This document shows, piece by piece, positions 24,503-25,827 of a stretch of DNA of 36,735 nt. The position numbers were made by a program, and so were the translations under genes. The DNA lies in the NCBI RefSeq assembly GCF_001294335.1, contig NZ_LGKG01000173.1, positions 1 to 36,735 on the forward strand. Direction: 5' to 3'. Under the pieces are notes generated by a model. It did not search any database. It was not told the DNA's origin and saw only the letters and a program-made list of their open reading frames with translations. This stretch comes from Streptomyces chattanoogensis. Lineage in GTDB: Bacteria > Actinomycetota > Actinomycetes > Streptomycetales > Streptomycetaceae. Each line of letters opens with the position of its first letter. Within the stretch, counting starts at the first letter, position 1.

Positions 24503-25393
24503 TCAGGACTTCGGGGGCACCACGGTGCCGTCGGCCTGGATCTGGGCGGTGCGCGACCGCTGCATCGTCCCGTGCGTCCGGGGAGCGAGCTCGGCGTCGG
24601 GATCGAGGACAGCCCAGGCGGCCGCCTGCACGGCATAGCCCTCCACGGCGTCGGCCGAGCACGAGAGGGGGCTGTACCAGGTCGTGTCCGGGTCGATCAC
24701 GACGTGCTGCCGCAGCGCGCTCCCCGTCTCGCACTCCTTGAACTTCCGCTGCCGGAGCCAGGCGACGTCCACGGACACCACGGCCTGTTCCGACCGCGTG
24801 TTGCGGACCTTGACCCCGAACTGCGCGGTGCCCTTGTGGTCCACGGCCTGGACGCACGGGCTGATGTCCAGACCGCTGGATCCCGAGCCACGCCATTCCC
24901 CGCAGTAGACGTCGGAGGACGGATACGCACTGATGGGTGACGCCTCCAGTTCCCGGGCCCCGGACGCCGACGGCTCGGCGGGCCGTTTCCGCTCCGGCGG
25001 TGCGGGGTTCGTGGACGGTTTCGGCGTCGGGGACCGGTCCTTCGGTGTCGCCGTCCCGGACGGGTCCGTCGACCGGCTCGGGCCCGGCGGCGCAGCCGAC
25101 GGGCGCTGCGCTCCCGGCCGCGCGGCGTCCGCCACCTCGCCCTGCGTGCCGAACCACGTCCGGCCGCCCACCGCGAGGGCCACCACCGCGGCCAGCAGCA
25201 CCCCGCCCGTGACCAGCGGCACCGGCCGGAGCAGCCGGGCCCGGAGCGGTTGCGGCCGCTCCGGCGGGACGGCGGGGAGGGTGACGAAGGTGTACTGCCG
25301 GTTGTCGGAGCGGTCGTTGATGTCTCCGTTGCCGGTGATGTTCTGCTGCCCGCCGTCCTGGGCCCGGTTGTGCTGGGCGCCCGGAGTCGTCAT
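24503..25393 (-). CDS. Single-span membrane protein with an N-terminal Q/N/G motif (gene B)
   Basis: A 296-residue protein of no family I recognise. Residues 7-26 (QHNRAQDGGQQNI...GDIN) repeat, gap-free, the C-terminal motif of the preceding gene (13 of 20 identical). Residues 57-77 are one membrane helix with Arg on its N-terminal side, so the motif should be cytoplasmic. A Pro/Ser/Thr-rich stretch (about 90-150) then leads to an extracellular-type domain with four Cys (VYCGEW, ISPCVQ, KECETG, LSCSAD). The ATG at 25393 lies in an ATGA overlap with gene A. The layout suggests an outside domain connected to an inside interaction motif. Confidence 0.8.
   Translation of the reverse strand: MTTPGAQHNRAQDGGQQNITGNGDINDRSDNRQYTFVTLPAVPPERPQPLRARLLRPVPLVTGGVLLAAVVALAVGGRTWFGTQGEVADAARPGAQRPSAAPPGPSRSTDPSGTATPKDRSPTPKPSTNPAPPERKRPAEPSASGARELEASPISAYPSSDVYCGEWRGSGSSGLDISPCVQAVDHKGTAQFGVKVRNTRSEQAVVSVDVAWLRQRKFKECETGSALRQHVVIDPDTTWYSPLSCSADAVEGYAVQAAAWAVLDPDAELAPRTHGTMQRSRTAQIQADGTVVPPKS
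25316..25375 (-). repeat. Motif copy 2: 60-nt segment shared by genes A and B
   Basis: Encodes residues 7-26 of gene B. Compared with 25420-25479 it is gap-free over 60 bases, with about three quarters identical; the protein motif is identical at 13 of 20 positions. Start-to-start distance is 104 bases, so the copies are in different frames of the minus strand and cannot be one repeated tract. Confidence 0.85.
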
Positions 25394-25827
25394 CCGGCAT
25401 GTCCCGGGCCGTTGTGGACGTTGATGGTGCCGCTCTGGAGGATGTTCTGGGTGCCGCCCGCCTGGGCGGTGTTGTGCTGGACGAAGGTCTGCTCGACCGC
25501 CGGCCCGCCGTTCGCCTGCGCCCGGGCGACGAGTTCCCGCAGCCGTTCCGCGATGTCGGGCCGTTCGGCGAGCAGGGCCTGCAGTTCGTCCGCCCACTGT
25601 TCGGCCTGCATCCGCCGGGCGAGCTCGCGTTCCGCGTCCCCGGTGCGGGCGAGGACCGCGGCCGAGCTCTCCAGCCGGCGGTCCGCCTCCTGCGTACGGT
25701 CCCGGTCGCCGCGTCCGAGCAGTTCGGCGAAGCCCGTCCGCACCGAGTTCCATGTGTCCGTCGCCATCGCACCGATCAGCGCCGTACCGCCGGCCGTCGC
25801 CAGCTGGCCAAGGACTTCTGGGATCAC
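25390..25827 (-). CDS. Small cytosolic helical protein with a C-terminal Q/N/G motif (gene A)
   Basis: A 145-residue protein without signal peptide or membrane helix. Residues 1-40 contain a small-residue helix (LGQLATAGGTALIGAMATDTW) and 45-105 are charged, Glu/Arg/Ala-rich and probably coiled coil. Residues 117-136 (QHNTAQAGGTQNI...GTIN) are a Q/N/G-rich, low-charge motif also present at the start of gene B; the protein stops 9 residues later. The start is GTG at 25827 after AGGGGG. I recall similar Streptomyces proteins with a GTALVxAMATDAW start and a variable Q/N-rich tail, but know no function. It is the first gene of a coupled pair (ATGA with B). Confidence 0.8.
   Translation of the reverse strand: MIPEVLGQLATAGGTALIGAMATDTWNSVRTGFAELLGRGDRDRTQEADRRLESSAAVLARTGDAERELARRMQAEQWADELQALLAERPDIAERLRELVARAQANGGPAVEQTFVQHNTAQAGGTQNILQSGTINVHNGPGHAG
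25420..25479 (-). repeat. Motif copy 1: 60-nt segment shared by genes A and B
   Basis: Encodes residues 117-136 of gene A, the counterpart of 25316-25375. Invariant positions in both proteins: Q-H-N-x-A-Q-x-G-G-x-Q-N-I-x-x-x-G-x-I-N. Confidence 0.85.

What the first reader, a model, noticed from the sequence alone, without database searches (positions are those of the whole stretch)
25316..25479. Adjacent genes share a 20-residue Q/N/G motif at touching ends: possible amyloid-type signalling pair
Seen: residues 117-136 of gene A and 7-26 of gene B align without gaps, 13 of 20 identical (QHN-AQ-GG-QNI-G-IN). One motif ends a soluble helical protein; the other begins a membrane protein with an extracellular Cys domain, and the genes are ATGA-coupled. 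Known: bacterial amyloid signalling sequences (BASS) join a sensor and an effector encoded next to each other through the same short Q/N/G-rich motif, one at a C-terminus and one at an N-terminus. Inferred: an outside sensor (B) may template assembly of A. The motif does not contain an evident RHIM core, so it may be a new class.
Basis: partly seen in the sequence, partly recalled or inferred. Interest (0 to 1): 0.8.

Follow-up and report, generated by a model that had tools for sequence, protein, structure and literature searches.

The report
Membrane sensor paired by amyloid-like motif
Two overlapping genes of a soil bacterium appear to encode a sensor in the cell membrane and a small cell-death-type protein that share a short matching motif, a membrane version of a signalling scheme so far described mainly for sensors inside the cell.

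Summary
In detail: A 117-136 and B 7-26 match 13/20 ungapped; no shuffle exceeded 10/20. A belongs to a Streptomyces family: helical bundle plus disordered, variable C-terminal motif. In many loci the next gene's N-terminus carries the same motif: by rule, 28 of 45 pairs (from 79 loci) match at p<=0.01; over 62 pairs, 17 hand-picked, own partners beat 20,000 re-pairings. 42 of 62 partners are long; 24 of those 42 have an NB-ARC, NACHT or nSTAND domain above cut-off: the published Bell/BASS layout. In the window and nine other pairs a single-pass membrane protein takes the NLR's place, with a beta-sandwich (B type), ricin-lectin or unrecognised ectodomain. A pair elsewhere (G084) carries a changed, again matching motif. 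Best reading: a transmembrane receptor signals to a Bell-like effector by templating between matched motifs. Amyloid, ligand and cell death are untested. One distant B homologue fails the pairing test; close orthologues show no co-variation.

The parts
25390..25827 (-). gene A: 145-aa Bell-like helical protein with C-terminal motif (putative effector)
25510..25818 (-). A residues 4-106: predicted five-helix bundle (first helix Gly/Ala-rich, moderately hydrophobic)
25420..25479 (-). motif of A, residues 117-136, inside the disordered tail (residues 108-145, pLDDT < 50)
25390..25393 (-). ATGA overlap of the A stop and B start
24503..25393 (-). gene B: 296-aa predicted single-pass membrane protein (putative receptor)
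25316..25375 (-). motif of B, residues 7-26, on the predicted cytoplasmic side
25166..25222 (-). B predicted TM helix, residues 58-76 (mean hydropathy 2.32; 4 K/R in the 20 residues before, 2 in the 20 after)
24914..25165 (-). B Pro/Ser/Thr-rich stalk, about residues 77-160
   Evidence: sequence; low confidence
24539..24910 (-). B ectodomain, residues 162-285: beta-sandwich, Ig-like by my naming; C164, C180, C221, C245 conserved in the 6 aligned homologues

Best explanation
A and B form a two-component signalosome, a membrane-receptor variant of the bacterial Bell/BASS scheme. B sits in the membrane with its beta-sandwich domain outside and its motif in the cytoplasm. Binding or clustering outside gathers B motifs, which nucleate an ordered (probably cross-beta) stack. 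The stack recruits and templates the disordered tail of A, and the clustered helical domains of A then act at the membrane, most likely to permeabilise it and kill or arrest the cell. Shown or predicted from sequence: matched motifs, gene overlap, helical domain plus disordered tail, single-pass topology, NLR-type and membrane-type partners behind the same effector family. Inferred: amyloid templating, direction outside-to-A, membrane damage.
For: Motif match beyond composition. A-family members in 39 of 61 genomes, own genome included, and in 42 of 61 of a second, overlapping set. Matched motif in the next gene: 28 of 45 rule-picked pairs at p<=0.01, 24 of the 45 overlapping and 20 of them by 4 bases; own score >=45 in 37 of 62 pairs against 241 of 3782 mismatched; 0 of 20,000 re-pairings reach the observed sum. 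Of 42 long partners, 24 have NB-ARC (17), NACHT (1), nSTAND1 (4) or nSTAND_NTPase5 (2) above the curated cut-off, 12 have only sub-threshold NTPase hits and 6 have none. In L061 the A-family frame continues into NB-ARC and TPR. Ten membrane-type pairs, 8 at p<=0.01 and 9 at p<=0.05; four with ricin-type lectin ectodomains. Lectin-type membrane partners (L012, L039, L068, L141) and long partners with sub-threshold NTPase hits (L016, L017) share one motif class, by eye and by cross-scores among the membrane ones. A-B pair in G084 between other genes, with jointly changed motif: A ..IQYITQGGDINV, B ..IQYITSGGDINV. Structure predictions.
Against: No amyloid assay or predictor was run. A's first helix is only moderately hydrophobic (1.25 over 19 residues), not a clear TM helix. 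A's model has no reliable fold match. The S. hygroscopicus B homologue (L035) fails the pairing test with its upstream gene (450 of 2000 shuffles as good; p 0.476). For the close A/B orthologues own pairing is not better than swapped pairing. 22 of 62 pairs do not reach p<=0.01, and 34 of the 79 rule-treated loci gave no pair (26 without a close downstream ORF, 8 with an A frame outside 90-185 residues). Six of 42 long partners show no NTPase, two of them protein phosphatases (L070, L071). B ectodomain homologues also occur without a seen motif or A partner (L078, L083).
Confidence: 0.66

Rival explanations
1. The motifs are a homotypic, non-amyloid docking element (for example a small beta-solenoid or heterodimer) that tethers A to the membrane protein B. 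B is then an anchor or regulator that holds A inactive, and activation is by release.
For: The sequence and genomic evidence for a matched A-B interaction fits docking equally well; no amyloid evidence was obtained here.
Against: The arrangement is that of published Bell/BASS pairs, and a Streptomyces BASS3 motif formed foci as a GFP fusion in Podospora while two proline mutants did not (PMC9815663, passages); the tail is predicted disordered.
Confidence: 0.2
2. Signal runs the other way: A senses something in the cytoplasm and B, with its stalk and ectodomain, is the output (surface display or membrane effector).
For: A's family is large and diverse; ricin-type and beta-sandwich ectodomains could act outward.
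Against: In the same family the partner slot is often taken by NB-ARC, NACHT or nSTAND proteins, i.e. receptor types (24 of 42 long partners), and in L061 the A-family domain lies N-terminal to NB-ARC, the usual effector position (position rule recalled).
Confidence: 0.09
3. Leftover of a local duplication or of shared Q/N/G-rich low complexity, without function.
For: Q/N/G-rich termini; the motifs lie close together on the DNA.
Against: Composition-preserving shuffles never reach the match; matching is kept in the diverged Ru73 orthologues (A 61%, B 57% identical) and recurs with other motifs and partners.
Confidence: 0.04

Closest known systems
Bell-NLR amyloid signalosomes with BASS motifs (Dyrka et al. 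2020, itself not held; seen through passages of PMC7889193, PMC8086366, PMC12261475 and PMC9815663)
   Same: Small helical protein with a C-terminal motif, next to (adjacent or overlapping) a gene with the same motif at its N-terminus; A's own family has NLR-type partners in this way.
   Different: The window's partner is a predicted single-pass membrane protein with an extracytoplasmic domain and no NTPase found; whether A matches the Bell profile or any of the ten BASS profiles was not testable.
RHIM / BASS3-type motifs
   Same: RHIM-like tails (classed by eye) occur in A-family relatives with NB-ARC partners (L043, L044, L045 above cut-off, L030 below), and a profile of them hits the small helical gene beside the S. 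hygroscopicus B homologue (22.7 bits, best shuffle 9.6).
   Different: The window motifs do not score on that profile (-0.6 and -2.2 bits) and Pfam reports no RHIM hit.
HeLo, MLKL and RPW8 helical death domains, listed as relatives of Bell in PMC9815663 (passages)
   Same: Helical bundle thought to act by clustering (analogy only).
   Different: No reliable structural match among the 29 chains compared; homology not shown.
Animal cell-surface innate receptors that signal through cytoplasmic assembly motifs (recalled)
   Same: Outside sensing coupled to a cytoplasmic assembly motif.
   Different: Analogy only; no homology tested.

Membership tests
Bell-NLR/BASS amyloid signalosome | Same short motif at the effector C-terminus and the neighbour's N-terminus, genes adjacent or overlapping | tested here: met
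   13/20, ATGA overlap; 0 of 2000 shuffles
Bell-NLR/BASS amyloid signalosome | Effector is a small alpha-helical bundle | tested here: met
   by prediction: five helices, residues 4-106; mean pLDDT 71.8 over the whole protein
Bell-NLR/BASS amyloid signalosome | Hydrophobic transmembrane helix in the Bell domain | tested here: inconclusive
   best hydropathy in the first 40 residues only 1.25 over 19 residues
Bell-NLR/BASS amyloid signalosome | Motif-bearing neighbour is an NLR (NB-ARC/NACHT) | tested here: not met
   B has no Pfam family at E<=10, one predicted TM and a beta-sandwich; met in relatives: 17 NB-ARC and 1 NACHT above cut-off among 42 long partners
Bell-NLR/BASS amyloid signalosome | Match to the published Bell profile or one of BASS1-10 | not testable with these tools
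   profiles not held; the defining paper is not in the library
Bell-NLR/BASS amyloid signalosome | Amyloid/prion formation and templating | not testable with these tools
   needs bench work
RHIM | RHIM profile match | tested here: not met
   no RHIM family for A or B at E<=10 (HMMER's filters drop most weak matches); own RHIM-like profile -0.6 / -2.2 bits
HeLo/MLKL-type four-helix bundle | Fold similarity | tested here: inconclusive
Known anti-phage defence systems (PADLOC-DB) | Profile match | tested here: not met
   0 families at E<=1 for A, B and the L035 effector

The most novel reading that the evidence does not exclude
Streptomycetes have a class of transmembrane pattern-recognition receptors, with beta-sandwich or ricin-lectin ectodomains, that signal across the membrane by seeding amyloid in Bell-like cell-death effectors. 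The receptors are interchangeable with NLRs behind the same effector family, so each matched motif pair is the private wire of one receptor-effector pair.
Probability: 0.5. Interest if true: 0.87.

Novelty: new variant of a known kind. Interest (0 to 1): 0.72.

Why it matters
In the papers seen here, amyloid signalling in bacteria is described around intracellular NLRs. If membrane receptors can take the NLR's place, the same scheme could report what is outside the cell (glycans, rivals, phages, cell-wall damage) to a death effector, a bacterial counterpart of surface innate receptors. It also supplies many naturally varied motif pairs for testing how specific amyloid templating is.

Tried and rejected

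Survey caveats: 14 of the first 27 A-family loci analysed (L025 and L029 of the 29 left out) entered the pair set because a coupled downstream gene was visible, i.e. chosen by hand; window, Ru73 and L035 were added by hand too (17 in all). The later 79 loci (39, 40) were handled by a rule (A frame 90-185 residues; ORF start -40 to +120 bases from the A end; GC3 > 0.75; highest GC3 taken; applied), giving 45 pairs. L075 was fetched but not analysed (same locus as L002), and L089-L118 were not analysed. The loci are not phylogenetically independent. Only the first 600 residues of long partners were scanned.

Full report
WHAT IS THERE. On the minus strand of the window, gene A (25390-25827, 145 aa) and gene B (24503-25393, 296 aa) overlap by ATGA. 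The organism is a Streptomyces by its nearest relatives (A 97% identical to an S. chattanoogensis protein). A's C-terminal residues 117-136 and B's N-terminal residues 7-26 match 13/20 without gaps; none of 500 whole-protein or 20,000 terminus-only shuffles exceeded 10/20.

A BELONGS TO A FAMILY OF MOTIF-TAILED HELICAL PROTEINS. A has no Pfam family above cut-off and no NCBIfam hit. Searching 61 genomes (own included) found relatives in 39, and a profile search of a second, overlapping set of 61 found them in 42. The first ~100 residues are conserved; the tail is variable. AlphaFold2 gives five helices (4-106) and a disordered tail from 108.

THE TAIL PREDICTS THE NEXT GENE. In many loci the tail of the A-like gene matches the start of the next gene. 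Of 79 loci treated by rule, 45 gave a pair; 24 of the 45 genes overlap, 20 by four bases, and 28 of the 45 match at p<=0.01 against shuffles. Over all 62 pairs (17 chosen by hand) 40 match at p<=0.01; own partners score >=45 in 37 of 62 against 241 of 3782 mismatched pairs, and none of 20,000 re-pairings reaches the observed sum; the own partner ranks first among 62 in 21 cases. Of the 42 long partners (>=390 residues), 28 match at p<=0.01. All 42 were scanned against Pfam (first 600 residues at most): 24 have NB-ARC (17), NACHT (1), nSTAND1 (4) or nSTAND_NTPase5 (2) above the curated cut-off, 12 show only sub-threshold NTPase hits, and 6 show none, two of these being protein phosphatases. In L061 the A-family frame continues into NB-ARC and TPR. 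This is the arrangement described for Bell and BASS (PMC7889193, passages): adjacent or overlapping genes, motif at the C-terminus of a small helical domain and at the N-terminus of an NLR.

INTERCHANGE OF RECEPTORS. One motif class, roughly F-G--xxQxG--xQ-N by eye, links A-like effectors both to long partners with sub-threshold NTPase hits (L016, L017) and to membrane lectin proteins (L012, L039, L068, L141); among the membrane ones the cross-scores confirm it. This argues that NLR-type and membrane proteins do the same job in these systems.

RESULTS AGAINST. Close A-B orthologues show no preference for their own partner; over five orthologous pairs 12 of 120 pairings, the true one included, do at least as well as the true one. 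The S. hygroscopicus pair is not supported on the B side. The first helix of A is only moderately hydrophobic and A's fold gave no reliable match. B-type ectodomains also occur without a seen motif or A partner. The window's own motifs score weakly on the class profile (5.2 and 6.1 bits).

MECHANISM. Most likely B clusters on an outside ligand, its cytoplasmic motifs nucleate an ordered stack, A's tail is templated onto it, and clustered A acts at the membrane. Matching, coupling and predicted topology come from the sequence; templating, direction and outcome are inferred by analogy with published systems, in which a Streptomyces BASS3 motif formed foci in Podospora (PMC9815663, passages).

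NOVELTY. Only three papers in the library hold the words BASS, Bell and amyloid signaling together. In the passages shown the receptors are NLRs, and I saw no membrane-anchored receptor mentioned. I recognised no paper describing one in the listings; preprints are not held, nor is the defining 2020 paper. I therefore call it a new variant of a known kind.

On re-reading I scanned the remaining 37 long partners, L141 and the G084 B; this replaced an earlier general statement about NB-ARC/NACHT partners by counts.

Noticed in passing
L055 (G000:C112:305800-310900): The window's own genome has a second A-family gene whose tail (RADGNARIYQAGRDLRV) matches the N-terminus of a coupled 452-aa TPR protein (RADGRDAARIYQAARDLHI) without an NTPase hit.
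   Followed up: partly
L062, L072, L126, L127: Partners of about 1200 aa with an N-terminal motif, an nSTAND1 NTPase and one predicted TM segment near residue 521-535: a possible second kind of membrane-embedded receptor.
   Followed up: partly
L057 and L153: Tail and short partner (238 and 225 aa, no clear TM) share a QHNHG-G-FI-GD motif, in L153 17 of 18 identical: the partner type is neither NLR nor membrane protein as far as seen.
   Followed up: no
L061 and L154: The A-family frame continues into TPR-bearing proteins (with NB-ARC in L061); in L154 a stretch that looks RHIM-like by eye lies between the two parts.
   Followed up: partly
L070 and L071: A-family genes overlapped by a gene for a PP2C-type phosphatase with two predicted N-terminal TM segments; no significant motif match.
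   Followed up: partly
L007, L008, L010, L028: Tandem A-family paralogues in which neighbouring or internal copies carry related C-terminal motifs.
   Followed up: no
L078 and L083: Homologues of the B ectodomain without a recognisable motif or an A-like neighbour in the stretch held.
   Followed up: partly
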